From Rathayibacter tritici (GTDB taxonomy: Bacteria > Actinomycetota > Actinomycetes > Actinomycetales > Microbacteriaceae), in NCBI RefSeq assembly GCF_002932875.1, contig NZ_PSWS01000046.1, positions 1 through 53,162 of the forward strand: a stretch of DNA of 53,162 nt, in the 5' to 3' direction. This document shows positions 7,403-30,987 of the stretch, piece after piece. The notes beneath the pieces are model-generated. The model saw nothing but the letters and a program-made list of their open reading frames with translations, was not told where the DNA came from and made no database searches. Both the position numbers and the translations under genes were made by a program. Each line of letters starts with the position of its first letter. The first letter of the stretch is position 1.

Positions 7403-9201
7403 GCACGCTCGGTTCCTCCGAGGAGCGCGACGACCTCTCGCGCGCGGAGTCGGCGTCGCTGCGCCGACGTTCGCTGCGGCTCCTCGGGTCGCTGCTGCGG
7501 CCGCTGCGGCTCAGACTGGTGCTGACGGCGGTCGTCGTGGTCGTCGCGACGGCGGCGCAGGTCGCGGGTCCAGCGCTGATCGCCGCGGGCATCGACAACG
7601 GCTTGCCCGCGGTGCTCGCGGGGAACGCCGTTCCGCTGGCCGTGACCGTCGGCGCCTACATCCTGACCGGGCTGATCGGCGCGCTCCTGGTCGCCTGGTA
7701 CACGGTGCTGTCGGCGCGGGTCAGCCAAGCGATCCTGATCGACCTGCGCAAGCGCGTCTTCCTGCACACGCAGAAGCTGAGCCTGGAGTTCCACGAGAAC
7801 TACACCTCCGGCCGAATCATCTCGCGGCAGACCAGCGACCTGGACTCCATCCGTGAGCTGCTCGACTCCGGAATCAACCAGTTGGTACAGGGCGCGCTCT
7901 ACATGGGCTTCGTCGCGATCGCGCTCGTCTCGCTCGACGGAGTGAGCGGCATCGTGCTCGCCTGCGCCCTCGTACCGCTCGCGCTGCTGACCCGCTGGTT
8001 CCAGAAGCGCTCGCAGGCGCTGTTCCGCGGCACCCGAGTCGCCTCGTCGCGGCTGATCGTGCAGTTCGTGGAGTCGATGACCGGCATCCGCGCGGTGCAG
8101 ACGTTCCGTACTCAGAAGCGCAACGAGACGGTGTTCGGGGGAGTCGTCGAGCAGTACCGGCTCGCATACAAGCGCGTCTTCGGCGTCTTCGGCACCTTCG
8201 ATCCCGGGCTCGTGCTGATCGGCAACATCACGGTCGCCGTGGTGTTGTTCATCGGCGGCGTCCGCGTGCTCGACGGCGGGCTCGAGATCGGCGCGCTGCT
8301 GGCGGTCCTGCTCTACACCCGGCGCTTCTTCGACCCGGTGCAGGAGATGGCGATGTTCTACAACTCCTACCAATCAGCGGCGGCCGCGCTCGAGAAGATC
8401 TCGGGCGTGCTGGCCGAGGAGCCGAGCGTCCCGGATCCGACCCGCCCGATCGATCTGCGCCAGGCGCGCGGCAGGCTCGGCTTCGAGGGCGTCCGCTTCG
8501 CCTACACCGCCGACCGCGAGGTGCTGCCGCGCTTCGATCTCGACATCCCCGCGGGGCAGACCATCGCGCTTGTCGGATCGACGGGTGCCGGCAAGACGAC
8601 GCTCGCCAAGCTGATCTCGCGCTTCTACGACCCGAGCGACGGCGTGGTGACCCTCGACGGCGTGGATCTGCGGCAGCTGCATCCGAAGGACCTGCGGCGC
8701 GCGATCGTGATGGTGACGCAGGAGGCGTACCTCTTCTCCGGGTCGGTCGCCGACAACATCGCGATCGGTCGGCCGACCGCGTCCTACGACGAGATCGTGC
8801 GCGCGGCGCAGGCTGTGGGCGCGCACGAGTTCATCCAGGCGCTACCGGACGGCTACGACACGGACGTGAACAAGCGAGGCGGCCGCGTCTCGGCGGGGCA
8901 GCGTCAGCTGATCTCGTTCGCGCGCGCGTTCTTGGCGGATCCCGCCGTGCTGATCCTCGACGAAGCGACCTCATCACTCGACATCCCGAGCGAGCGCCTG
9001 GTGCAGCAGGGGCTCCAGACGCTGCTGGCCGACCGCACCGCGGTCATCATCGCGCACCGCCTCTCGACGGTCGCGATCGCCGACCGCGTGCTGGTGATGG
9101 AGCACGGCCGCATCGTCGAGGACGGCGCTCCGGAGGCGCTCATCGCCGGCGACGGCCGCTTCGCCACCCTGCACGCGGCCTGGCGCGACTCCCTCGTGTG
9201 A
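7399..9201 (+). CDS. ABC exporter half-transporter, catalytic subunit
   Basis: The 600-residue protein has a membrane domain (about 35-310) followed by an ATPase domain with Walker [10 protein letters not shown] (393-401), an intact Q-loop (VTQEAYLFS), signature VSAGQ (Gly to Ala at 499), Walker B LILDE with catalytic E522, and H-loop AHRLST. The intact Walker motifs complement the degenerate partner encoded immediately upstream, while the altered SAGQ signature falls in the degenerate composite site. It overlaps the partner by four bases, so the two are almost certainly co-translated and heterodimerise. Confidence 0.92.
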
Positions 9202-9231
9202 GGCGCGGCGCGCTGACGTGCGTGCGTGCGA

Positions 9232-9280
9232 TGTGCAGGGACGCGTGCGGTGTGCAGGGACGCGTGCGGTGTGCAGGGGA
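9232..9280. repeat. 19-bp tandem repeat, array 1 (about 2.5 copies)
   Basis: The unit TGTGCAGGGACGCGTGCGG occurs at 9232-9250 and 9251-9269, then a partial copy starts at 9270. It lies in the non-coding region after the ABC exporter. Its TGTGCAGGG core is the reverse complement of the core of the second array. Confidence 0.85.
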
Positions 9281-9332
9281 TCCTCGTGAGGAGGGCGATC
9301 CTGCCGCGAGAATGAGCCGACGAGAGGCGGAT

Positions 9333-9467
9333 CCCCTGCGAATCGGACGGCCCCCTGCGAATCGGACGGTCCCCTGCGAATCGGACGGTTTCCTGCACAT
9401 CGGACGGTCCCCTGCACAGCGGACGACAGCGGACGACAGCGGACGACAGCGGACGACAGCGGACGGC
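9333..9467. repeat. 19-bp tandem repeat, array 2 (five copies), running into a 10-bp repeat (four copies)
   Basis: Units of 19 bp of the form CCCCTGCGAATCGGACGGT start at 9333, 9352, 9371, 9390 and 9409. Units four and five change CGAAT to CACAT and CACAG. From 9428 the 10-bp unit AGCGGACGAC repeats four times. The period is exact. No gene overlaps it on either strand. Confidence 0.9.
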
Positions 9468-9497
9468 GGCGGGCGGCGGCCCGGCGTGCCGGACGAG

Positions 9498-9818
9498 TCA
9501 GGGACGCCAGCGGCCGGCGCGCATGTCGACGCGGTAGCCGCCCGGAGTGACGACCAGAGGCGTGCCCTCGCGCTCGTACTCGTGGCGAGCCCGCTCCTCG
9601 TGTCCTCGTGGTGGCGCACCTCCCGAGCGCACGACACGCCACCATGCGACGTCCGAGCCGTAGTGCGCCATCACCATGCCGACGACCCGCGCCGCTCGAC
9701 TGCCGAGCACCGCGGCGATCTCGCCGTACGCCATCACGTGCCCGGGCGGGATCGACTCGACGACGCCCAGAACTGCCGCGATGAACTCCGGCCGATCTGC
9801 GTCGACCTGCTCACTCAG
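9498..9818 (-). CDS. MGMT-family (alkyltransferase-like) DNA-binding protein
   Basis: This small protein of about 106 residues resembles the C-terminal domain of O6-alkylguanine-DNA alkyltransferases. Motifs are FIAAVLGVVESIPPGHVMAY, GEIAAVLGSRAARVVG and WWRVVRSGGAPPRGHE. The reactive Pro-Cys-His-Arg of true MGMT is replaced by AWWRVV, so it cannot accept alkyl groups. It belongs with alkyltransferase-like proteins, which flag alkylated bases for excision repair. The recognisable fold begins about 27 residues before the first ATG/GTG. The frame reaches a CTG at 9818 that overlaps the stop of the upstream GNAT gene as CTGA, mimicking the usual ATGA coupling, so I place the start there. The conventional GTG at 9737 would cut the first helix. 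Confidence 0.75.
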   Translation of the reverse strand: MSEQVDADRPEFIAAVLGVVESIPPGHVMAYGEIAAVLGSRAARVVGMVMAHYGSDVAWWRVVRSGGAPPRGHEERARHEYEREGTPLVVTPGGYRVDMRAGRWRP

Positions 9819-10264
9819 AGCGTCAGCGCCCCGATGTTCTCGCCGTACTGCGTCTCGCCGACCACCTCGAAGCCGATCCAGCGGAAGAACTGCTCCGGGC
9901 CGTCCTCGCCCGACTCCCAGATCACGGTGAGGGTGCCGAAGCCGCGGGCGCGGGCCTCCTCGGCGGTGGCGCGGACGGCGAATGTGCCGACGCCGCGGCC
10001 CTGCTTCGCGGCGTCGATGTTGATGCGCCAGATGCAGCTGCGGAACTCCTCCGCCGCCTCCGGATCGAAGTGCGCGTGGATGAAGCCGACCAGCTCGTCG
10101 CCGTCCATCACGGCGCGTTGCCAGGAGGCGCCGGGGTCGATCACAGCGGCGGCGGCGGAGTAGGAGACCGGCGCGATGAACTGCTCCTGGCCGGGTTTGA
10201 GGCTCAGCCCGTTCACGGCGGAGATGTTCGAGGCGGACAGCTCTTCCAAGCGAAGGTCACTCAT
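9815..10264 (-). CDS. GNAT-family N-acetyltransferase
   Basis: The 149-residue protein fits a single GNAT domain: a central strand WQRAVMDGDELVGFIHAHF, then the acetyl-CoA loop QGRGVGTFAVRATAEEAR, then a C-terminal FFRWIGFEVVGE. It resembles the spermidine acetyltransferase (PaiA/BltD) type, but the substrate is not determinable. It starts with ATG six bases after TACAGT, so it is probably leaderless, and it overlaps the downstream MGMT-like gene by four bases. Confidence 0.85.
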   Translation of the reverse strand: MSDLRLEELSASNISAVNGLSLKPGQEQFIAPVSYSAAAAVIDPGASWQRAVMDGDELVGFIHAHFDPEAAEEFRSCIWRINIDAAKQGRGVGTFAVRATAEEARARGFGTLTVIWESGEDGPEQFFRWIGFEVVGETQYGENIGALTL

Positions 10265-10270
10265 GCCGTC

Positions 10271-10276
10271 ACTGTA
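10271..10276 (-). promoter_or_regulatory. -10 element of the GNAT-MGMT operon (leaderless)
   Basis: Minus-strand TACAGT is followed by six bases and the ATG at 10264. Confidence 0.5.
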
Positions 10277-10379
10277 GCGGCGGGCCGCATGGGGGGCATC
10301 CTCCTGGCGGGCGACGCATGTAGTTCCCTGAGCCGATAGCGGAGAAGTGTCTCGACATCGAGACAGTTGGAGCCTCGGG

Positions 10380-10385
10380 TAGGCT
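10380..10385 (+). promoter_or_regulatory. Probable -10 element of icd
   Basis: TAGGCT lies about 75 bases before the icd start. Unlike many neighbours, icd has a leader of about 70 bases and a GGGAG ribosome binding site. No clear -35 is visible. Confidence 0.4.
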
Positions 10386-10460
10386 GGCGGAGGCCATCCG
10401 GAGCGGTGCAGAGCCGCACGTCCCGCACAGGTGCGGGGTCATCGACATCATGGGAGAGCA

Positions 10461-11678
10461 ATGTCCAAGATCAAGGTTGAGGGAACAGTCGTCGAGCTCG
10501 ACGGCGACGAGATGACACGCATCATCTGGCAGAAGATCAAGGACACCCTCATCCACCCGTACCTCGATGTGAACCTCGAGTACTACGACCTCGGCATCGA
10601 GCACCGCGACGAGACGGACGACCAGGTCACGATCGACGCGGCGCACGCCATCCAGAAGCACGGGGTCGGCGTGAAGTGCGCGACCATCACGCCCGATGAG
10701 GCCCGCGTCGAGGAGTTCGGCCTGAAGAAGATGTGGAAGTCGCCCAACGGCACGATCCGCAACATTCTCGGCGGCGTGATCTTCCGCGAGCCGATCATCA
10801 TCTCGAACATTCCGCGCCTGGTTCCGGGCTGGAACAAGCCGATCATCATCGGGCGCCACGCATTCGGCGACCAGTACCGCGCCACCGACTTCGTCTTCAA
10901 GGGCAAGGGCACGCTCACCGTCGAGTTCACGCCCGAGGACGGCTCCGAGCCGATGAAGTTCGAGGTCTACAAGGCCCCCGACGACGGCATCGCGCAGGTC
11001 CAGTACAACCAGGACGCCTCGATCCGCGACTTCGCTCGCTCGTCCCTGAACTACGGCCTCTCGCGCAACTACCCGGTCTACCTCTCGACCAAGAACACGA
11101 TCCTCAAGGCCTACGACGGGCGCTTCAAGGACATCTTCGAGGAGATCTTCGAGACCGAGTTCAAGGAGCGCTTCGACGCCGCCGGTCTCACGTACGAGCA
11201 CCGCCTCATCGACGACATGGTCGCCTCGGCCATGAAGTGGGAGGGCGGCTACGTCTGGGCCTGCAAGAACTACGACGGCGACGTCCAGTCCGACACCGTC
11301 GCCCAGGGCTTCGGATCGCTCGGCCTGATGACCTCGGTGCTCTCCACTCCCGACGGAAGCGTCGTCGAGGCGGAGGCGGCGCACGGCACGGTCACGCGCC
11401 ACTATCGCCAGCACCAGGCGGGAAAGCCCACCTCGACCAACCCGATCGCCTCGATCTACGCCTGGACGCGCGGCCTCGCGCACCGCGGCACGCTGGACGG
11501 CAACCAGGAGCTCATCGACTTCTCGCTCACGCTCGAGGATGTGGTCATCACGACGGTCGAGTCCGGAAAGATGACGAAGGACCTCGCCCTGCTCGTCGGC
11601 CCCGAGCAGGGCTGGCAGACGACCGAGGAGTTCCTCGCGACCCTCGACGAGAACCTGAAGGTGCGCATGTCGGCCTGA
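10461..11678 (+). CDS. icd: NADP-dependent isocitrate dehydrogenase (homodimeric, eukaryote-type)
   Basis: The 405-residue enzyme oxidatively decarboxylates isocitrate to 2-oxoglutarate in the TCA cycle, producing NADPH. It begins [19 protein letters not shown]. Substrate-binding residues occur in [13 protein letters not shown] and REPI. The metal-binding region is [20 protein letters not shown], and the NADP-binding loop is [14 protein letters not shown]. Length and motifs match the subfamily II enzymes of mycobacteria and eukaryotes, not the E. coli type. The ATG at 10461 is preceded by GGGAGAGCA. A perfect hairpin terminator follows the stop. Confidence 0.96.
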
Positions 11679-11696
11679 CCGCCGGTTCTCACGAGA

Positions 11697-11731
11697 GTGC
11701 CCGGCTCGCACGGATCCAGTGAGCCGGGCAC
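11697..11731. terminator. Perfect 11-bp hairpin between convergent genes
   Basis: GTGCCCGGCTC (11697-11707) pairs without mismatch with GAGCCGGGCAC (11721-11731). It sits between icd and the convergent LLM gene and can serve both directions. Confidence 0.85.
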
Positions 11732-13461: not shown

Positions 13462-16400
13462 TTGCCGATCCACCTGTCCCATCGTCCACCCGTCCGCCGC
13501 GCTGGAAGGCGCATCCTCGCGGGCTTCGCCGTCCTCGGAGTCGCCGCGACGGCGGCCTTCGCCAGCACCGGCGCCAGCGCCGCCCCTCTCGCCGGAACCG
13601 CATCACTCGTCGGCGGGCTCTCCACCGGCCAGAGCTTCGATGACGGCGATTACGTCGTCACCCTGGTCGAGCCCTCCGCGGCTACCTACCAGGGCACGGA
13701 CGCCCGCTTCGCCCGCACCGCGCCCGCGGAGGGCGCGCAGCTGCAGGCCACCTCCGCACCAGTGGAGGACTACTCCGCTCACCTCGAGCAACGCCAGCAG
13801 GATGTGGCCTCCGCGGTCGACGCCGCCATCGGCTACCACTACACCGTCGCCCTCAACGGCTTCTCGGCGAGCCTCTCCGGCGAGCAGGCGGGCGAGCTCG
13901 CGAGCCGCCGCGACGTCGCCCAGGTCCGCAAGGCCGAGAATCTGAAGCTCGATCGTGCCGCGCAGACGGCGCCGCCCGCCGAGACCGCCGCCGGCATCCC
14001 GGTGCCCGACACCGGACAGCAGCGCTCGACCGATTTCCTCGGCCTCGAGGGCGAGAACGGCGTCTGGCAGAAGCTGGGCGGCGTCGACAAGGCGGGCGCA
14101 GGCGTCGTCGTCGGCGTCATCGACTCCGGCATCGCACCCGAGAACCCCTCCTTCGCGGGCCCGCCCCTGGCGACCTCGCCCGGAGCGGCCCCCTCGACGG
14201 ACGGCACCACCACCTCCTTCGTGAAGTCGGACGGCGGAACCTTCGTCGGCTCCTGCTCGCCGGGGCTTCCCGCCTCCGAGCAGTGGAACGGCGACGAGTG
14301 CAACCAGAAGCTGATCAGCGCCCGCTGGTTCCTCGGGGACGAGAAGGTCGGCTCGAAGGACCACCCCGAGTATCGCTCCCCGCGCGACGGCGGCGGACAC
14401 GGCTCGCACACTGCGAGCACTGCCGCCGGCAACAACGGCGTCGAGGCCAGCGTCGACGGCTACGACTACGGGCGGATTTCCGGCGTCGCGCCGGCCGCGA
14501 AGGTCGCCGCCTACAAGGTCTGCTGGAACGGACCCAACGACGACGACTTCTGCTCCGGGTCGGGCATCCTCGCCGCCATCGACGCCGCGACCAAGGACGG
14601 CGTCGATGTCATCAACTTCTCGATCGGCGGCGGCGCGGCCATCTCGACCCTGACCACGATCGACGAGGCGTTCCTCAACGCCGCCGCCGCGGGTGTGTTC
14701 GTCGCGGCCTCGGCCGGCAATGCCGGTGCGGGCGCCTCCACCCTCGACCACGCGTCGCCCTGGTACACCACGGTCGCCGCATCCTCCATCCCGACCTACA
14801 CCGCGACCGCCACCCTCGGTGACGGCCAGAAGTTCGTCGGAGGATCCATCTCGGTCCACGACGACGTCACCGGACCGCTGGTCACCAGCGCCGATGTCGT
14901 CCGGCCCGGCACCGAGAACCCCACTCTTTGCGAGAGCGGCACGCTCGACCCCGACAAAGTGAAGGGCAAGGTAGTCGCCTGCACGGCGGGTGTCACCGCG
15001 CGCCTGTCGAAGTCGGTCGAGGTCGAGCGGGCCGGCGGCATCGGCATGCTGCTGCTCAACCCGACCCCGAACGCTCTGCACGTCGATGACCACTCGGTCC
15101 CGAGCATCCAGATCGACTCGCAGGCCTACCAGGCCATCACCGCCTACGCCGGCACCGCCGGTGCGACGGTGAACCTCTCCGAGGGCAACGCGTCCGGCGC
15201 TGTCATCCCCGTCCCTCAGGTCGCCGGCTTCTCGTCGCGCGGACCGGCGGAGGCGGACGGCTCCGACGTGCTCAAGCCCGACCTCACGGCGCCCGGCGTC
15301 GGGATCCTGGCCGACAGCTTGAACGCCCAGGGCGATGACCCCGCCTTCGCGTTCGAGTCGGGCACATCGATGTCGTCGCCGCACGTCGCCGGACTCGGCG
15401 CGCTGATCCTCGGAGCGACACCCAAGGCCTCGCCGTCCGCGGTGAAGTCGGCGATGATGACCTCCGCGTATGACAGCGTCGACCAGTCCGGAGCTGTGTC
15501 CAAGGACGTCTTCGCGCAGGGTGCCGGACACGTCGACCCGGCCGCATTCCTGGACCCCGGCCTGATCTACGACAGCGGGACGGCGGACTGGATCGCGTAC
15601 CTCAAGGGCGCGGGCTACTCCTTCACGCCGAACGACGCGATCAACGGCATCACGGCGATCGACCCGTCCGACCTCAACCAGGCCTCGATCGCGATCGGTT
15701 CCCTGGCGGGCGCGCAGACCGTCACTCGCACGGTGACCTCGACCGGCGCGGGCACGTACACCGCCTCGGTCGACGGCCTCGCCGGGGTCGACGCCGTCGT
15801 CTCGCCCTCGACCCTCTCCTTCACGGGTGCGGGCCAGACGGCGCAGTACACGGTGTCCTTCACCACCGGGTCGGCACCGCTCAATCAGTTCGCCACCGGC
15901 TATCTGACCTGGGCGAGCGCGGAGCACGACGTCCGTAGCCCGATCGCGGTGCGCCCGGTCCTGCTGGACGCGCCGTACGAGGTGTCCGGCACCGGCTCCA
16001 CCGGCACCGGCTCGGTGACGATCGCGCCCGGCATCACGGGTCCGCTGCCGCTGGCTGCGAGCGGCCTCACGCAGGGCGTCCTCGCCGAGGATGCGACAGC
16101 CACCGACGGGCACTCGGCGTCCCTCCCCAAGGGGAAGTCGCTGACGACCACCGTGGTGGTGCCCGAGGGCGCCGAATTCGCCCGCTTCGACCTCGACTCG
16201 GTCGACGACACGGCCGACCTCGACCTGACCGTCACGAGCCTGAGCACGAAGAAGGTCTTCACCTCGGCGACCGGTACGGCCGACGAGCGCGTCGACATCG
16301 CCGACCCCGCCCCGGGCGAGTACACGGTCCAGGCCGATGTCTACTCGACCGCTCCCGGGTCCTCGACCTCGACGTTCGATTTCCGCAGCTTCGTCATCAC

Positions 16401-16848
16401 TCCGGAGAACGGACTCGGATCGCTCAGCACCGACCCGGCCGTGATCGATGCGGTGCAGGGCGAGCCGACGGCCTACGCCGTCTCGTGGTCGAACCTGGCC
16501 GGCCCGGCCCGCTACCTCGGCCGCGTCGTGTATGCCGGATCGGGACTCTCGACGCTCGTGAGCGTCGACGTCGCCGAGGCGGTCTCGCCCACTCCGACGC
16601 CGACCGCCGCTCCGGAGCCCGAGGGCCCCTCGGAGCCGACGATGCCACCGGCGGTCGGCCCGATCGTCGCTCCGGGGGAGCCCACCGAACCGGGCGCGCC
16701 CGAACACGGTGGTGGCGGCCTTGCATCGACGGGCTTCGACGGCGGTCTCCTCGGAGCCGTTGCTCTCGCCCTCGTCGGTGCGGGTGCTGTGCTCATCGGC
16801 CTCCGACGCCGTGCCCTGGCGCGGCATGAGGTGGCCGCCGCGGAGTAG
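13462..16848 (+). CDS. Secreted, probably wall-anchored subtilisin-like serine protease (S8)
   Basis: This 1128-residue exoenzyme begins at TTG 13462, with AAGGA seven bases upstream. In order it has a signal peptide ending near ASA-A (1-41); an I9-type inhibitor propeptide (about 60-165); an S8 catalytic domain with Asp221 in VVVGVIDSGI, His313 in GGGHGSHTAS and Ser636 in ESGTSMSSPHVAG; an inserted protease-associated (PA) domain at about 460-580; a fibronectin-like domain; and beta-rich domains up to a Pro/Glu/Thr stalk (about 1040-1080). The C-terminus LASTG (1087-1091), a hydrophobic helix and RRRALARHE form a sorting signal of the LPXTG type with Ala at position 2. It probably degrades extracellular proteins at the cell wall. 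Some plant-associated relatives use such proteases as virulence factors, but nothing here proves that. Confidence 0.92.
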   Translation: MPIHLSHRPPVRRAGRRILAGFAVLGVAATAAFASTGASAAPLAGTASLVGGLSTGQSFDDGDYVVTLVEPSAATYQGTDARFARTAPAEGAQLQATSAPVEDYSAHLEQRQQDVASAVDAAIGYHYTVALNGFSASLSGEQAGELASRRDVAQVRKAENLKLDRAAQTAPPAETAAGIPVPDTGQQRSTDFLGLEGENGVWQKLGGVDKAGAGVVVGVIDSGIAPENPSFAGPPLATSPGAAPSTDGTTTSFVKSDGGTFVGSCSPGLPASEQWNGDECNQKLISARWFLGDEKVGSKDHPEYRSPRDGGGHGSHTASTAAGNNGVEASVDGYDYGRISGVAPAAKVAAYKVCWNGPNDDDFCSGSGILAAIDAATKDGVDVINFSIGGGAAISTLTTIDEAFLNAAAAGVFVAASAGNAGAGASTLDHASPWYTTVAASSIPTYTATATLGDGQKFVGGSISVHDDVTGPLVTSADVVRPGTENPTLCESGTLDPDKVKGKVVACTAGVTARLSKSVEVERAGGIGMLLLNPTPNALHVDDHSVPSIQIDSQAYQAITAYAGTAGATVNLSEGNASGAVIPVPQVAGFSSRGPAEADGSDVLKPDLTAPGVGILADSLNAQGDDPAFAFESGTSMSSPHVAGLGALILGATPKASPSAVKSAMMTSAYDSVDQSGAVSKDVFAQGAGHVDPAAFLDPGLIYDSGTADWIAYLKGAGYSFTPNDAINGITAIDPSDLNQASIAIGSLAGAQTVTRTVTSTGAGTYTASVDGLAGVDAVVSPSTLSFTGAGQTAQYTVSFTTGSAPLNQFATGYLTWASAEHDVRSPIAVRPVLLDAPYEVSGTGSTGTGSVTIAPGITGPLPLAASGLTQGVLAEDATATDGHSASLPKGKSLTTTVVVPEGAEFARFDLDSVDDTADLDLTVTSLSTKKVFTSATGTADERVDIADPAPGEYTVQADVYSTAPGSSTSTFDFRSFVITPENGLGSLSTDPAVIDAVQGEPTAYAVSWSNLAGPARYLGRVVYAGSGLSTLVSVDVAEAVSPTPTPTAAPEPEGPSEPTMPPAVGPIVAPGEPTEPGAPEHGGGGLASTGFDGGLLGAVALALVGAGAVLIGLRRRALARHEVAAAE

Positions 16849-18395: not shown

Positions 18396-20657
18396 TCACT
18401 CGACCGTCACGGCGCTGGTGGCGATGGCTCCGACGCGGCCGCCCGGAGCGGAGTATCGGACGCCCGCCACGTGCGTCCCTGCGGGTAGGTCGATGGTCGT
18501 GGTGAGGACGGGGGCTCCGGGAGCGAGGGCCTGCACCGGCTCGCCGTCGACCAGGAGCTCCAGTCCGTCGGCGTCCGAGTCGGCGAGGACGAGCACGCGG
18601 ACGTCGCCGGCGCTCGCCGAGTCCGGAGCGATGAGCGTCGGTGCGCGCAGATCGACGCTCGCCGGTGCGCTCGCTCCGGACGCGGAGCGGGCGAGTACGG
18701 TCGTCCTGCCGAGGGGGAGGGGTAGGGCGGTGGCGGTCCAGCGGCCGGTGGCGTCGGCCGTGGCCGCACCGTAGCGGCGGTCGTCGGCTGCATCGACGAG
18801 GAGGACCGTGGCTCCGGGCTCAGCGGTTCCCGCGGCGTCGGGGAGGAGCCGGCCGTCGGTGTCGAGCACGAGAGTGGGCGCGGCGGCGGTCGGCGCATCA
18901 GCAGCCGGAGTCGGAGCCGGCGGCGCGGGGGTCGTCGCCGGCTCGGGCGCAGGAGTCGCCGTCTCGGGTGCGGGTGCGGGTGCGGGTGCGGGTGCGGGTG
19001 CGGGTGCGGGGTCCGGCTCCGGTGCTGGTGCTGGGTCCGGTGCCGGTGCCGGTGCCGGTTCCGGTGCTGGTTCGGGCGTCGGAGTCGGGTCCGGCGCAGG
19101 TGCCGGTTCGGGTGCCGGTGCAGGTGCCGGTTCGGGTTCGGGTGCAGGTGCCGGTGCCGGTGCAGGTGCAGGTGCGGGTGCGGGTGCTGGGGTCGGGTCC
19201 GGCGCAGGTGCGGGTGCGGGTGCGGGCGCCGGTATCGATCCCGGTGCGGGCGTCGCTGTCGACGTCGCAGTGCCGTTCCGCTCGGAGGCGACGGGTGCCG
19301 GCGCCGGTCCGCCGGAGGGAGCGGGGACGGCCGTGGTCTCCTCCTGCGGTGCGCGATCGCCGGTGCGCGGAGCCGAAACAGCTGCGAAAGAGCTGCTGTT
19401 CGGCGTCGCCTCGGCGTCCGCTGGCGGAGCGGTGCCGGGCCGGTCGGCCTCAACTGCTCTGCTCCGGTTCTGCGTGCTGTCCGTCCCTCCGGCTGCATCG
19501 GACGATGCGACCCGCTCGGGCTCCTGCCCGTCGGTGCTCGCGCTGGGTGCGGTGGCCGCCTCGAGGGTCGATTCCGGATTCGGGGTGCGTCCCGTCTCGT
19601 GGTCCTCCTTGTGGGGGAGCGCCTCCTGGGGAAGCGCCTCCTGCGGGAGCGCCTCCTCCGACGCAACGACCGACTGGACCGTCCCTGCGGACAGCAGCAC
19701 TGCGCCCCCGCCGACTCCTGCGATCGCGAGCCCCGCCACGACGGCCACGGTGACAACCACGCCCGCTCCACTCCCGGCCCGCGACGCCTGGACGCCGCTC
19801 CGCAGCGCACTGGCGCCGGACGCCGAGGCTCCGCTTGACGCCGACGCGCCGCCCGCAGCACCCCACGCCGCGGCCCCGCTCAACCCCGCGACGAGCGGCA
19901 GCAGCACCGTCGCGAGTCGTCGGCTTGCGTGCTCGGCTTCGGCCAGTGCCTCGCGGCAGGAAAGGCACTCGGTCAGGTGGCCGTTCAGGCGCAGCCTGTC
20001 CCGAGCGGGCAGCCTGCCGCGAGCGTGCGCCCCCGCTCGCTCCAGTACCCACTCGCATTCGCCGGTTGCGGAGGAGTCGAGGACGTGCTCTCGGATCCAG
20101 GCCGCCCGCAGGCCCTCCCGCGCGCGCATCCCGAGCGCCGCGACCGCGTTGGGACGGAGACCGAGCAGCGGCGCGGCGTCGGCGGGAGCCAGGCCCTCGA
20201 CCTCCGTGTACCAGAGCACCTCCTGCCAGCGCGCCGGCAGCGCCCGGAATGCGCGGGCGCCGAGATCGCGCTCCAGCGCCGCGAGTGCGCGCTCCTCCGG
20301 GTCCGGGCCGGCAGCGAGGAGGGAATGGTCGTCCTCGTCGAACGGTCGCTCCCGCCGGCTCCGGCGCGCCCAGGAGCCGGCGACGTTGCGGATCGCGGTG
20401 AAGAAGTAGGGGCGGAAGGCGCCCTCGGGGCCGCCTCCGCCCTCGACCACCCGCAGCACGCGAAGGAACGCCTCCGAGACCAGGTCATCGGGGTCCGAGC
20501 TGCTCGACCAGGCACGGGCGACCGTACGTCCGGCGCCGGAATGACGGCGCCACAGCTCGGAGACGGCGTCGGTGCGTCCGCTGCGCACGAGCGCGAGCAG
20601 TTCGGGATCGCCCAGACCATCGACGCTCTCGGAGCCGCGTCGAAGACCCACAGCCAC
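18396..20657 (-). CDS. ECF sigma factor fused to ZAS-type anti-sigma domain, membrane anchor, Pro-Ala stalk and Ig-like domain
   Basis: One 753-residue frame reads, in order: sigma-2 (about 17-105, with DPDDLVSEAFLRVLRVV and FRPYFFTAIRNVAGSWARR); sigma-4 (about 125-192, with a helix-turn-helix at VEGLAPADAAPLLGLRPNAV); a zinc-binding anti-sigma motif His-x3-Cys-x2-Cys (H227, C231, C234 in GHLTECLSC); a membrane segment (about 298-323); a triple EALPQ repeat (335-348); a Ser/Thr-rich linker; a Pro-Ala tract (about 470-585); and a C-terminal beta-rich Ig-like domain (about 591-753). Separate sigma and anti-sigma proteins are the norm. Here both would be tethered to the membrane with a sensor-like extracellular arm. 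Release of the sigma part would need proteolysis or a conformational switch; this is inference. GTG 20657 follows GAGGGGG closely, and GTG at codon 3 is an alternative start. It is transcribed divergently from glyA. Confidence 0.85.
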   Translation of the reverse strand: MAVGLRRGSESVDGLGDPELLALVRSGRTDAVSELWRRHSGAGRTVARAWSSSSDPDDLVSEAFLRVLRVVEGGGGPEGAFRPYFFTAIRNVAGSWARRSRRERPFDEDDHSLLAAGPDPEERALAALERDLGARAFRALPARWQEVLWYTEVEGLAPADAAPLLGLRPNAVAALGMRAREGLRAAWIREHVLDSSATGECEWVLERAGAHARGRLPARDRLRLNGHLTECLSCREALAEAEHASRRLATVLLPLVAGLSGAAAWGAAGGASASSGASASGASALRSGVQASRAGSGAGVVVTVAVVAGLAIAGVGGGAVLLSAGTVQSVVASEEALPQEALPQEALPHKEDHETGRTPNPESTLEAATAPSASTDGQEPERVASSDAAGGTDSTQNRSRAVEADRPGTAPPADAEATPNSSSFAAVSAPRTGDRAPQEETTAVPAPSGGPAPAPVASERNGTATSTATPAPGSIPAPAPAPAPAPDPTPAPAPAPAPAPAPAPAPEPEPAPAPAPEPAPAPDPTPTPEPAPEPAPAPAPDPAPAPEPDPAPAPAPAPAPAPAPETATPAPEPATTPAPPAPTPAADAPTAAAPTLVLDTDGRLLPDAAGTAEPGATVLLVDAADDRRYGAATADATGRWTATALPLPLGRTTVLARSASGASAPASVDLRAPTLIAPDSASAGDVRVLVLADSDADGLELLVDGEPVQALAPGAPVLTTTIDLPAGTHVAGVRYSAPGGRVGAIATSAVTVE
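18903..19250 (-). repeat. Coding low-complexity Pro-Ala tract within the sigma-fusion gene
   Basis: About 115 codons alternate mostly Pro-Ala, with spaced Pro-Glu, Pro-Asp and Pro-Thr pairs. The DNA shows GGTGCG/GGTGCC hexamer periodicity on the plus strand. It probably forms an extended stalk that spans the cell wall, and it is prone to length variation by slippage. Confidence 0.9.
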
Positions 20658-20760: not shown

Positions 20761-20766
20761 TAGAGT
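20761..20766 (+). promoter_or_regulatory. Probable -10 element of glyA-folD
   Basis: TAGAGT places transcription start near 20773, just at the 5' end of the riboswitch aptamer. The leader is about 185 bases. Confidence 0.5.
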
Positions 20767-20771
20767 GGGCG

Positions 20772-20865
20772 CGCCGCGACTGGCGTTTGGATGGGTGACC
20801 ATCAGGGAGCGGCACCTCCTCCGGGGCAGCGTCCCGGACACTTTTCCCGCCGCACGCCTGGGCTG
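20772..20865 (+). ncRNA. ZTP riboswitch (pfl motif) upstream of glyA
   Basis: Both conserved aptamer halves are present in order. The first is GCCGCGACTGGCG, then a hairpin GATGG-GTGA-CCATC, then AGGGAGCGGC. After a variable linker, CCGCACGCCTGGGC closes the pseudoknot side. This matches the published ZTP/pfl consensus (GACUGGCG, a hairpin, GGGAGC, then CCGCCUGGGC). These riboswitches bind ZMP/ZTP, which accumulate when 10-formyl-THF is scarce, and turn on one-carbon genes such as glyA and folD, the very genes downstream here. The expression platform (about 20866-20945) lies before an AAGGAG ribosome binding site; whether control is by translation or termination is unclear. Confidence 0.92.
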
Positions 20866-20957
20866 GAACGGATACCGTAGATCGGGTCGCCCGAACGAGC
20901 CGTGTCGCGCCGCCGCGACCTGCCGGGCCCCTTCCGTTTCCCAGCCAAGGAGCGTCC

Positions 20958-29302: not shown

Positions 29303-30567
29303 CCACCCTCGCGGCGGTCGGGCGCGACGACGAGGCCAAGCGCGTCGCCCTGGTCCGGATGAAACGGCTCGCTACGGGCCTGCTCGTGGTGATGGCTGTC
29401 GTGTTCGCCGTCTCGTTCGCCCTTCAGGACCGGTATCCGTGGCTGCAGTGGGTGCGGGCCGCGAGCGAGGGCGGAATGGTCGGCGCGCTCGCCGACTGGT
29501 TTGCCGTGACGGCGCTGTTCCGCCGTCCGCTCGGACTACCGATTCCGCACACCGCGATCATCCCGACCAAGAAGGATGAGATCGGCGCGAGCCTCGCGCA
29601 GTTCGTCGAGGAGAACTTCCTCCGCGGCGCCATCGTGCGCGAGAAGCTCGACTCCTTCGGGGTCGCCCGACGGGCGGGGCTCTGGCTTGCCGAGCCCGAG
29701 AACGCGCAGCGGGTCGGTGGCGAGAGCGCGGCCGCCGTCCGGTCCGCGATCGCGCTGCTGGACGACTCCGACGTGCAGCGCGTGATCGAAGCGCTCGCGC
29801 GACGCCACCTTCTCGACCCGCAGTGGGGGCCGCCGCTGGGCTCGCTGGTGGGCAGTGTGGTCGAGGCCGGGCACCACCGGCGCCTTGTCGACACGCTGGT
29901 CGAGCAAGCGGAGGCCTGGCTCGCCGCGAACCCGCAGAGCTTCACCCGGATGGTCAGCGGACGCCTGCCGAGCTGGTTGCCGTCCGCGGTCAGTCGAGCG
30001 GTGGACGAGCGGCTGTATCACGAGGCCCTCGTCTTCATCGCAGCGGTACGCGACGAGCAGGGCCACCCGTTGCGGATCGCCATCGACGGCTACCTCGCCA
30101 CGCTGGCGGAGGATCTGGGCACCGATCCCGATCTGATCGCCCGTGTCGAGGAGATCAAGAACCGCGCGTTCGACAGCCCGCGCGTGCGCGAACTCGCCGG
30201 CGACGCCTGGGAGGCGACGAAGGCCTCTCTCCTCGGTGCGATGGACGACCCGGCGAGCCCGCTCCGCGGCAGCATCGAGTCCATCGTGGTCGACCTCGGC
30301 CGGCGTCTCTCGACCGATGCCGGCCTCGCCGCAACCGTCGATGCCTGGATCGGATCCGTCGCGGCGAACCTCGTCGACCGCTACCGCACCGACATCGCCA
30401 GCATCATCGGCGACACGATCCACCGCTGGGACCCGCGCGAGACGTCCGAGAAGCTCGAGCTGCAGGTTGGCAAGGACCTCCAGTTCATTCGAATCAACGG
30501 CACCGTTGTCGGCTCCCTGGCCGGCCTGGTCATCTTCACCCTCGCGCACGCGCTGCTCGTCGCGTGA
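29299..30567 (+). CDS. DUF445 family membrane protein
   Basis: The 422-residue protein has one or two N-terminal membrane segments (LATGLLVVMAVVFAVSFAL), the family block GGMVGALADWFAVTALFRRP followed by GLPIPHTAIIPTKKDEIG, a long amphipathic alpha-helical middle, and a C-terminal membrane helix (TVVGSLAGLVIFTLAHALL). DUF445/YheB-like proteins have no firm function; envelope association is likely. The start is ATG 29299, overlapping the epimerase stop as ATGA, so it is translationally coupled to the galactose genes, although a direct role in sugar use is not implied. Confidence 0.88.
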   Translation: MTTLAAVGRDDEAKRVALVRMKRLATGLLVVMAVVFAVSFALQDRYPWLQWVRAASEGGMVGALADWFAVTALFRRPLGLPIPHTAIIPTKKDEIGASLAQFVEENFLRGAIVREKLDSFGVARRAGLWLAEPENAQRVGGESAAAVRSAIALLDDSDVQRVIEALARRHLLDPQWGPPLGSLVGSVVEAGHHRRLVDTLVEQAEAWLAANPQSFTRMVSGRLPSWLPSAVSRAVDERLYHEALVFIAAVRDEQGHPLRIAIDGYLATLAEDLGTDPDLIARVEEIKNRAFDSPRVRELAGDAWEATKASLLGAMDDPASPLRGSIESIVVDLGRRLSTDAGLAATVDAWIGSVAANLVDRYRTDIASIIGDTIHRWDPRETSEKLELQVGKDLQFIRINGTVVGSLAGLVIFTLAHALLVA

Positions 30568-30621
30568 ACCGGAGTGCAGGGGGCCGCTCCGCAAGCCCTC
30601 GTCGGTGTCGGTGGTCGGGCG

Positions 30622-30627
30622 TACCGT
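30622..30627 (+). promoter_or_regulatory. -10 element of the DUF3072 gene (leaderless)
   Basis: TACCGT is followed by six bases and ATG 30634. Confidence 0.45.
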
Positions 30628-30633
30628 CGCAGC

Positions 30634-30915
30634 ATGAGCGATGACAACACCACCGACCCCGATGTCAAAACCGAGGGCGATGTCCTCGGCGCACGTGCCG
30701 ACGACGGCAGCGACACCAGCGCCAGCAAAGACCCGTCCGACTGGGTGACCGGCGATGAGCCGATGACCGGCCCGCAGCGCAGCTACCTCGACACCCTTGC
30801 GCGCGAAGCGGGCGAGACCCTCCCCGCCGATCTCACCAAGGCCCAGGCCTCCGAGCACATCGATCGTCTGCAGTCCGCCACGGGCCGCGGCGACGGCAGC
30901 AATGGTCACGACTGA
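30634..30915 (+). CDS. DUF3072 domain protein
   Basis: This acidic protein of 93 residues has a disordered N-terminal half rich in Asp, Thr and Ser and the C-terminal block PMTGPQRSYLDTLAREAGE then LPADLTKAQASEHIDRLQ. That block is the DUF3072 signature, also found at the end of some DNA-associated proteins as a small helical module. Function unknown. The start at 30634 is chosen over the frame-extending upstream codon because TACCGT stands six bases before it. Confidence 0.8.
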   Translation: MSDDNTTDPDVKTEGDVLGARADDGSDTSASKDPSDWVTGDEPMTGPQRSYLDTLAREAGETLPADLTKAQASEHIDRLQSATGRGDGSNGHD

Positions 30916-30943
30916 TTCCCTGGGAGTTTCCGGTGAGTGAGTA

Positions 30944-30987
30944 ATGGTCCGGTGACGCGTCCTAGAGAGGACGCGCCACCAGACCAT
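30944..30987. terminator. Long hairpin between convergent genes
   Basis: Three stacked helices: ATGGTC/GACCAT, GGTG/CACC and CGCGTCCT/AGGACGCG around an AGAG tetraloop, separated by single mismatches. It lies between the DUF3072 gene and the convergent secreted-protein pair, so it probably terminates both. Confidence 0.75.

What the first reader, a model, noticed from the sequence alone, without database searches (positions are those of the whole stretch)
18396..20657. One-protein sigma factor, anti-sigma domain, membrane anchor and extracellular arm
A single 753-residue frame joins sigma-2, sigma-4, a His-x3-Cys-x2-Cys zinc motif typical of ZAS anti-sigma factors, a membrane helix, a triple EALPQ repeat, a Pro-Ala stalk of about 115 residues and an Ig-like C-terminal domain. 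ECF sigma factors with C-terminal extensions are known, but this combination with a wall-spanning stalk suggests a self-contained transmembrane transcription switch: the Ig-like head senses or binds something at the surface, and cleavage or pulling frees the sigma part. No separate anti-sigma gene is nearby.
Basis: partly seen in the sequence, partly recalled or inferred. Interest (0 to 1): 0.78.

Follow-up and report, generated by a model that had tools for sequence, protein, structure and literature searches.

The report
Membrane-anchored one-protein sigma switch
This gene encodes a transcription-starting protein fused to its own likely inhibitor, a membrane anchor and an outer immunoglobulin-like head; the design is already known from Streptomyces and common in this bacterial family, so the new part is mainly that the outer head differs from relative to relative.

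Summary
The 753-residue frame is real. It lies on the minus strand, window 20657..18396. The sigma-zinc-membrane core is conserved: 159 of 398 sampled family genomes match its first 260 residues, and the sigma-zinc part is under strong purifying selection (dN/dS 0.08 against the closest relative). It is not a chimera. It is also not a new kind of switch: ECF sigma factors with a fused zinc anti-sigma-like domain, membrane helix, Pro-rich arm and extracellular domain are published as groups ECF52/53/48, with SCO4117 of Streptomyces coelicolor as the studied case. A tree puts the window's clade beside an ECF52-like clade whose members end in an NPCBM carbohydrate-binding domain. The window protein ends instead in two Ig-like domains (AlphaFold pLDDT 95.9), so a defining ECF52 feature is not met: a sister variant with another head. 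Most likely working: the sigma part is held at the membrane by its own zinc domain and freed by proteolysis; inhibition and release are inferred, not shown. The head as ligand sensor is doubtful: it evolves faster than the core, is interrupted in the closest relative, and is lacking in L052, L073 and L074. Neighbouring amino-sugar genes proved shared background, not regulon evidence.

The parts
18396..20657 (-). whole gene: fused ECF sigma / zinc anti-sigma-like / membrane / stalk / Ig-like head protein, 753 aa, GTG start
20352..20552 (-). sigma-70 region 2, residues 36-102
   Evidence: Pfam PF04542 27.8 bits, above cut-off; predicted fold resembles sigmaE region 2, 4lup_A TMt 0.87
20115..20255 (-). 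sigma-70 region 4, residues 135-181
   Evidence: Pfam PF08281 below cut-off; NCBIfam TIGR02937 covers 30-185; W144, L148, E154, R178-A179-R180 invariant in 42 of 42; 3hug_A sigma-4 TMt 0.87
19953..20057 (-). ZAS-like zinc domain zf-HC2, residues 201-235, C201 / H227-x3-C231-x2-C234
   Evidence: Pfam PF13490 above cut-off; invariant residues; weak PDB matches to RslA and RsiW, E 0.084 and 0.81, with an unrelated third at 0.92
19860..19916 (-). conserved hydrophobic segment 1, residues 248-266; probably the last helix of the anti-sigma-like domain rather than a full membrane crossing (inference)
   Evidence: helix 232-258 in the model, pLDDT falling from about 75 to 55 there; charge pattern
19713..19769 (-). 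membrane helix (segment 2), residues 297-315, predicted N-in C-out; not resolved in the AlphaFold model
   Evidence: 15 residues before: 19 positive, 2 negative; after: 14 positive, 36 negative, summed over 42 sequences; in the window itself 2 positive before and no charge after
19611..19655 (-). EALPQ-EALPQ-EALPH triple repeat, residues 335-349; not in the closest relative L051
18888..19247 (-). Pro-Ala stalk, about residues 471-590
   Evidence: Pro-rich but unalike stalks in homologues
18399..18893 (-). head, two Ig-like domains, residues 589-753
   Evidence: Big_6 at E 5.1e-5, 23.9 bits, below its cut-off of 27.6; AlphaFold pLDDT 95.9, pTM 0.84; PDB relatives SiiE and Bap

Best explanation
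It is a self-contained transmembrane sigma-factor switch of the ECF52-like kind. Shown by sequence: sigma-2/sigma-4, a ZAS-like zinc domain, a conserved hydrophobic helix, a membrane helix whose flanking charges fit N-inside/C-outside, a low-complexity stalk and two Ig-like domains on one chain. Inferred: the zinc domain folds back on sigma-2/sigma-4 and keeps the protein off RNA polymerase while it sits at the membrane; a signal at the wall or outer face leads to cleavage on the outer side and then in the membrane, the zinc part is removed or loosened, and the sigma part is set free. Positive feedback on its own gene is possible in relatives (conserved promoter-like element), but that element was not found in the window.
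For: Domain matches. Invariant zinc residues and conserved order in homologues. 32 of the 36 loci not cut at the 3' contig end carry the core in a frame of 449 aa or more (one of the 32, L078, is cut at its 5' side and one, L010, holds unknown bases). Sigma-zinc dN/dS 0.08 against L051. Tree: the window's clade lies beside the NPCBM-headed clade under a midpoint root, whose member L013 has NPCBM and a TetR-type gene upstream, as SCO4117 has atrA. Charge pattern. Proteolysis model for ECF48/52/53 in print, with IutY of Pseudomonas putida as the experimentally characterised precedent.
Against: No experiment bears on this protein. The AlphaFold core has pTM 0.49 and does not settle how the zinc domain packs on the sigma domains; among the 50 Foldseek rows shown, high TM-scores (TMt 0.74-0.87) are to single sigma domains, whole sigma chains reach at most 0.48. 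The head is interrupted in L051, not seen in L052 and absent in L073 and L074, so release need not depend on it. The sigma-4 Pfam match is sub-threshold in this protein. One relative (L100) is a stand-alone sigma; by eye, no zinc or membrane part follows it in the stretch read. L076 stops before the membrane helix and L075 changes frame.
Confidence: 0.66

Rival explanations
1. Same anchored sigma/anti-sigma fusion, but activation is by loosening of the zinc domain (redox, metal or force) without cleavage; the stalk only tethers it.
For: ZAS domains such as RsrA respond to redox (recalled; a title in the reference list seen). The zinc residues are invariant in 42 of 42. Headless homologues exist (L073, L074).
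Against: A membrane-anchored sigma would have to reach promoters while tethered; the published model and the IutY precedent favour cleavage.
Confidence: 0.17
2. The head and stalk are a passive wall tether or decoy with little sensing role; the signal is read at the membrane-proximal part or by protease abundance. This is not exclusive of release by proteolysis, so its odds overlap with the best explanation.
For: Head interrupted in the closest relative L051, not seen in L052, absent in L073 and L074; head dN/dS 0.37-0.65 in 10 pairs against 0.08-0.37 for the core in 21 pairs.
Against: 17 of 42 C-termini examined match Big_6 and head dN/dS is below 1 in all 10 pairs, so the head is retained in many lineages; the Streptomyces-type branch keeps NPCBM.
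Confidence: 0.3
3. Segments 1 and 2 both cross the membrane, so the stalk and head are cytoplasmic.
For: Segment 1 has mean hydropathy 1.85 over 42 sequences and exceeds 1.6 in 39 of 42. A review passage speaks of one to two transmembrane helices in ECF48/52/53.
Against: Summed charges around segment 2, though many rows have none before it; NPCBM and adhesin-like Ig heads are typically extracellular (family knowledge); segment 1 continues the zinc-domain helix in the model.
Confidence: 0.06
4. A chimera or frameshift artefact joined two genes.
For: None found in the window gene; some relatives do have interrupted frames (L051, L075, L076).
Against: Same order in homologues of many genomes; purifying selection.
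Confidence: 0.01

Closest known systems
ECF52 group, SCO4117 of Streptomyces coelicolor (PMC5826349)
   Same: ECF sigma + zinc finger + transmembrane region + Pro-rich arm + extracellular domain on one chain; SCO4117-like proteins form the neighbouring clade
   Different: ECF52 as described ends in a carbohydrate-binding module (smart00776/NPCBM); the window protein ends in two Ig-like domains. The window gene lies between glyA and purU, not by atrA. SCO4117 itself was not in my data.
ECF53 and ECF48 groups (passages of PMC8999054, PMC10766802)
   Same: C-terminally fused ZAS-like domain and one or two membrane helices, as described there
   Different: Not compared with classified members here; more distant relatives found (L099, L102-L107; zf-HC2 above cut-off in L103 and L105) fall outside the window's 46-row group.
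IutY of Pseudomonas putida, ECF243 (passage of PMC8999054)
   Same: sigma and membrane anti-sigma on one chain, described there as released by Prc and RseP
   Different: Gram-negative iron-starvation cell-surface signalling; alike in mode of action only, kinship not tested.
Big_6-type adhesin domains, SiiE (2yn3) and Bap (7dm0)
   Same: head profile matches them (E 1.3e-7 and 6.6e-13, mainly over the first Ig domain); SiiE is the top and Bap the seventh Foldseek row
   Different: Adhesin domains, not linked to sigma factors; Foldseek TMq is at most 0.43 over the two domains, and many other Ig/FN3 proteins match.

Membership tests
ECF sigma factor (sigma-70 group IV) | sigma region 2 and region 4 in the ECF arrangement | tested here: met
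   TIGR02937 56 vs 42.9 bits over 30-185; Sigma70_r2 above cut-off, r4_2 below it; PDB profile matches to SigE, SigH, SigW and others, 18 sequences
ZAS anti-sigma domain | H-x3-C-x2-C zinc site in a small helical domain | tested here: met
   zf-HC2 23.4 vs 22.2 bits; H227, C231, C234 invariant in 42 of 42; RslA and RsiW are the best, weak, PDB matches
ZAS anti-sigma domain | binds and inhibits its sigma factor | not testable with these tools
   needs biochemistry; the model's domain packing is not reliable (pTM 0.49)
ECF52 | sigma, zinc finger, transmembrane region, Pro-rich extension on one chain | tested here: met
ECF52 | C-terminal carbohydrate-binding module (smart00776/NPCBM) | tested here: not met
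   No NPCBM in the window protein at E <= 1 nor among the families matched by 42 C-termini at E <= 0.01; present in L013, L086, L087, L092, L096
ECF52 | placement with classified ECF52 members by the published group profiles | not tested
   The ECF classification paper was not held; the tree used L013, SCO4117-like by synteny and NPCBM, as stand-in
Regulated proteolysis of the sigma part (IutY-like) | release by site-1 and intramembrane proteases | not testable with these tools
   inference from the published model

The most novel reading that the evidence does not exclude
The sigma-zinc-membrane core is a conserved chassis in Actinomycetota on which the extracellular head has been exchanged (NPCBM, paired Ig, fibronectin III, other, none), so that new input signals were acquired by swapping one domain of a single-protein transcription switch; the Ig pair in this clade would read cell-wall state or surface contact. 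The different heads are shown; that they carry different signals is not.
Probability: 0.35. Interest if true: 0.6.

Novelty: new variant of a known kind. Interest (0 to 1): 0.36.

Why it matters
It extends the published one-component sigma switches beyond SCO4117: a large Microbacteriaceae branch keeps the same intracellular core but not the carbohydrate-binding head. Natural headless, interrupted and different-head forms make it possible to ask whether the head carries the signal or only tethers the protein, a question that the SCO4117 paper's discussion leaves to further work.

Tried and rejected
Rejected: (1) Sequencing or assembly chimera: excluded by homologues and selection. (2) A link to amino-sugar metabolism from gene neighbours. 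Amino-sugar genes (nagA-like, GH20, glucosamine-6-phosphate isomerase type, ROK, SIS, aldolase) lie in 14 of 29 homologue loci examined and not near the window gene (nagA is named from recall, Pfam calls it an amidohydrolase). But in 13 genomes without a detected homologue (all those of 2.8 Mb or more among the 20 no-match genomes listed; 219 more were not listed; 'no match' means E > 1e-10 with at most 6 candidates scored) nagA lies within 4 kb of purU in 7. So this is shared chromosomal background. (3) Autoregulation in the window itself: a promoter-like element GCGTCAT-N16-CGTCTC was seen upstream of relatives; a leave-one-out matrix beat all 100 shuffles in 19 of 39 upstream regions, 8 of them the sites it was built from, each left out in turn, and rows are related. 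It did not do so in the other 20, among them the window, L001, L026 and L051-L054. (4) A regulon from that pattern: in 10 genomes it gave 24 places, 7 at the gene itself and 1 beside it; the backward control gave 0, so the other 16 are an excess that I did not explain; looked at by eye with a crude gene finder they showed no shared function. (5) A protease partner: the S8 subtilase at 13462..16848 keeps synteny in L001 and L051-L056, as do purU, DUF2568, glyA and folD there, so nothing follows. (6) The + strand frame 18808..20409 (Gly-Ala rich) is taken as the shadow of the Pro-Ala frame, since homology and selection lie on the minus strand.

Led nowhere: the window's own genome is not held; the ECF classification paper and the Actinobacteria survey are not held; literature searches listed no paper on an Ig-headed or Microbacteriaceae fused sigma factor that I recognised from title and abstract start, in an open-access library only. 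L134 and L135 were fetched but not read; the 305-aa frame at G614 C1:2804277 was not examined.

Full report
WHAT IS THERE. The frame lies on the minus strand, 20657 down to 18396, 753 residues with a GTG start. From the N-terminus: sigma region 2 (36-102) and region 4 (135-181), with NCBIfam's ECF model above its cut-off and Pfam's region 4 model below it; a zf-HC2 zinc domain (201-235, above cut-off); a hydrophobic segment 248-266; a stronger one at 297-315; EALPQ-EALPQ-EALPH at 335-349; a charged and then Pro-Ala-rich stretch to about 590; and an Ig-like end.

IS IT MORE THAN CHANCE. One scan of the genome collection gave 15 loci: a Rathayibacter with 68% identity, eleven Microbacterium or Microbacteriaceae, and three Streptomyces, of which L013 matters here and L014 and L015 are weak. 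In the family of the Rathayibacter genome, 159 of 398 sampled genomes matched residues 1-260 at E <= 1e-10. Of 42 loci whose proteins I extracted, 6 are cut by the contig at the 3' side; of the other 36, 32 carry the core in a frame of 449 aa or more (one, L078, is cut at its 5' side; one, L010, holds unknown bases) and 4 end early: L073 and L074 just after the membrane helix with an unrelated gene following, L075 by a change of frame, L076 before the membrane helix. The sigma-zinc part has dN/dS 0.08 between the window and its closest relative L051. So the fusion is old and kept.

CORE AND TOPOLOGY. AlphaFold gives mostly confident helices for sigma-2, sigma-4 and the zinc domain up to about residue 240 (10-residue means above 80 except 1-10, 101-120 and 191-200), but pTM is only 0.49 and the membrane part is unresolved. 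Single domains match sigmaE region 2 (4lup_A) and the sigma-4 of SigL from its complex with the anti-sigma RslA (3hug_A), both TMt 0.87; whole sigma chains reach at most 0.48 among the rows shown. By sequence the zinc stretch is closest, weakly, to RslA (E 0.084) and RsiW (E 0.81) in the PDB, with an unrelated protein at 0.92. Segment 1 continues the last zinc-domain helix and is highly conserved (LALVLLPL..G). Around segment 2, summed over 42 related sequences, the 15 residues before hold 19 positive and 2 negative charges and the 15 after 14 positive and 36 negative; many rows have none before it, and the whole loop between the segments holds 42 positive and 26 negative. This favours N-inside, C-outside, with segment 1 more likely part of the anti-sigma-like domain than a membrane crossing.

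HEAD. The window's last 165 residues model as two beta-sandwiches with pLDDT 95.9 and pTM 0.84. In the set of 20 that I chose because their ends aligned as Ig-like, 17 match Big_6 at E <= 0.1; among 42 C-termini, 17 match it at E <= 0.01. The 42 come mostly from the best-scoring loci, not a random sample, and leave out L003, L008, L010, L011, L013, L029, L050, L051, L071, L072 and L075-L079 (cut, interrupted, Streptomyces, or not put in). PDB relatives are adhesin domains of SiiE and Bap. Other members end in fibronectin III (L084, 26.2 vs 25 bits), in Pro-Glu or Pro-Thr tails, or otherwise. Streptomyces-type members end in NPCBM: by Pfam in L013, L086, L087, L092 and L096, by eye in L089, L090, L091, L093 and L094. 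dN/dS of heads is 0.37-0.65 in 10 pairs, 1.6 to 4 times that of the core in the same pairs; cores span 0.08-0.37 in 21 pairs (a simple counting method, with synonymous change near saturation in some pairs). The closest relative, L051, has its head frame interrupted near the 3' end and was left out of the head pairs; L052 shows no Ig head by eye.

KINSHIP. In a tree of 53 cores (rooted at the midpoint, with long-branch warnings) the 33-row clade with the window (92/91, not starred) stands beside a 13-row clade (91/77) that holds the ten NPCBM-headed rows (100/99 for these plus L098, 94/84 for the ten alone). Both lie inside a 46-row group (99/91, starred), apart from L099 and, further out, L102-L107. 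One of the 33 rows, L101, comes from the phylum-wide search and has an unsure place. L013, in the NPCBM clade, has a TetR-type gene just upstream, as SCO4117 has atrA (PMC5826349, section 15), so I take it as SCO4117-like; SCO4117 itself was not in my data. In the phylum-wide search 78 of 396 genomes matched the core profile at E <= 1e-15, many over the sigma part only.

WHAT IS KNOWN. PMC5826349 (abstract, sections 15 and 21 read) describes ECF52 as sigma, zinc finger, transmembrane, Pro-rich extension and carbohydrate-binding domain, exclusive to Actinobacteria, with a suggested release of the sigma domain by an unknown protease. PMC8999054 (passages; [quoted passage not shown] PMC10766802 (passages) notes predicted glycosyl hydrolase and carbohydrate-binding domains on some ECF52/53 proteins. 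In the open-access searches I ran I recognised no paper on an Ig-headed or Microbacteriaceae member; the main classification papers were not available, so such members may be in print there.

HOW IT MOST LIKELY WORKS. The zinc domain holds the sigma part inactive at the membrane, and cleavage outside and then inside the membrane frees it. The inhibition, the trigger and the proteases are inferred. That headless and head-broken forms exist suggests the head is not indispensable; it may tune or tether. A promoter-like element upstream of 19 of 39 relatives would fit positive feedback, but it was not found in the window or the other Rathayibacter-like loci.

NEIGHBOURHOOD. The gene lies between purU (same strand, downstream) and glyA-folD (divergent), an order shared in L001, L051-L060 and L064. 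A ZTP riboswitch precedes glyA. Amino-sugar genes near 14 of 29 homologues are also next to purU in 7 of 13 genomes without a detected homologue, so I draw nothing from them.

VERDICT. Observation confirmed; interpretation partly supported; a new variant of a known kind.

Noticed in passing
window 20766-20870 +: ZMP/ZTP riboswitch (RF01750, 47.3 bits) between the sigma gene and glyA, upstream of glyA.
   Followed up: partly
L051 7379-7903 -: In the closest relative (95% core identity) the frame of the Ig head is shortened and interrupted near its end.
   Followed up: partly
L073 4720-5745 +, L074 4808-5815 +: Headless homologues of about 350 aa that end just after the membrane helix, each followed on the same strand by a gene that reads like a UDP-GlcNAc 2-epimerase (named from recall, not by a family search).
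   Followed up: partly
L100 1495-2016 -: A stand-alone sigma relative (E 6e-60 to the core profile) with, by eye, no zinc or membrane part in the stretch that follows.
   Followed up: partly
upstream of the genes in L002, L027, L028, L030, L044, L045, L049, L050: Conserved promoter-like element GCGTCAT-N16-CGTCTC (CGTCTG in L044), about 85-180 bp before the aligned start; in G094 a second copy faces the other way about 60 bp off.
   Followed up: partly
10 genomes, 16 places away from the gene: The same pattern occurs 16 more times against 0 for its backward control; no shared function was seen.
   Followed up: partly
window 13462-16848 +: S8 subtilase with inhibitor, PA and fn3_6 domains and a hydrophobic C-terminal anchor seen in the translation, syntenic in L001 and L051-L056.
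   Followed up: no
window 9198-10160 +, 10269-11711 -, 29536-30987 -: Open frames of 321, 480 and 483 aa without a Pfam match at E 1e-4; they may not all be genes.
   Followed up: no
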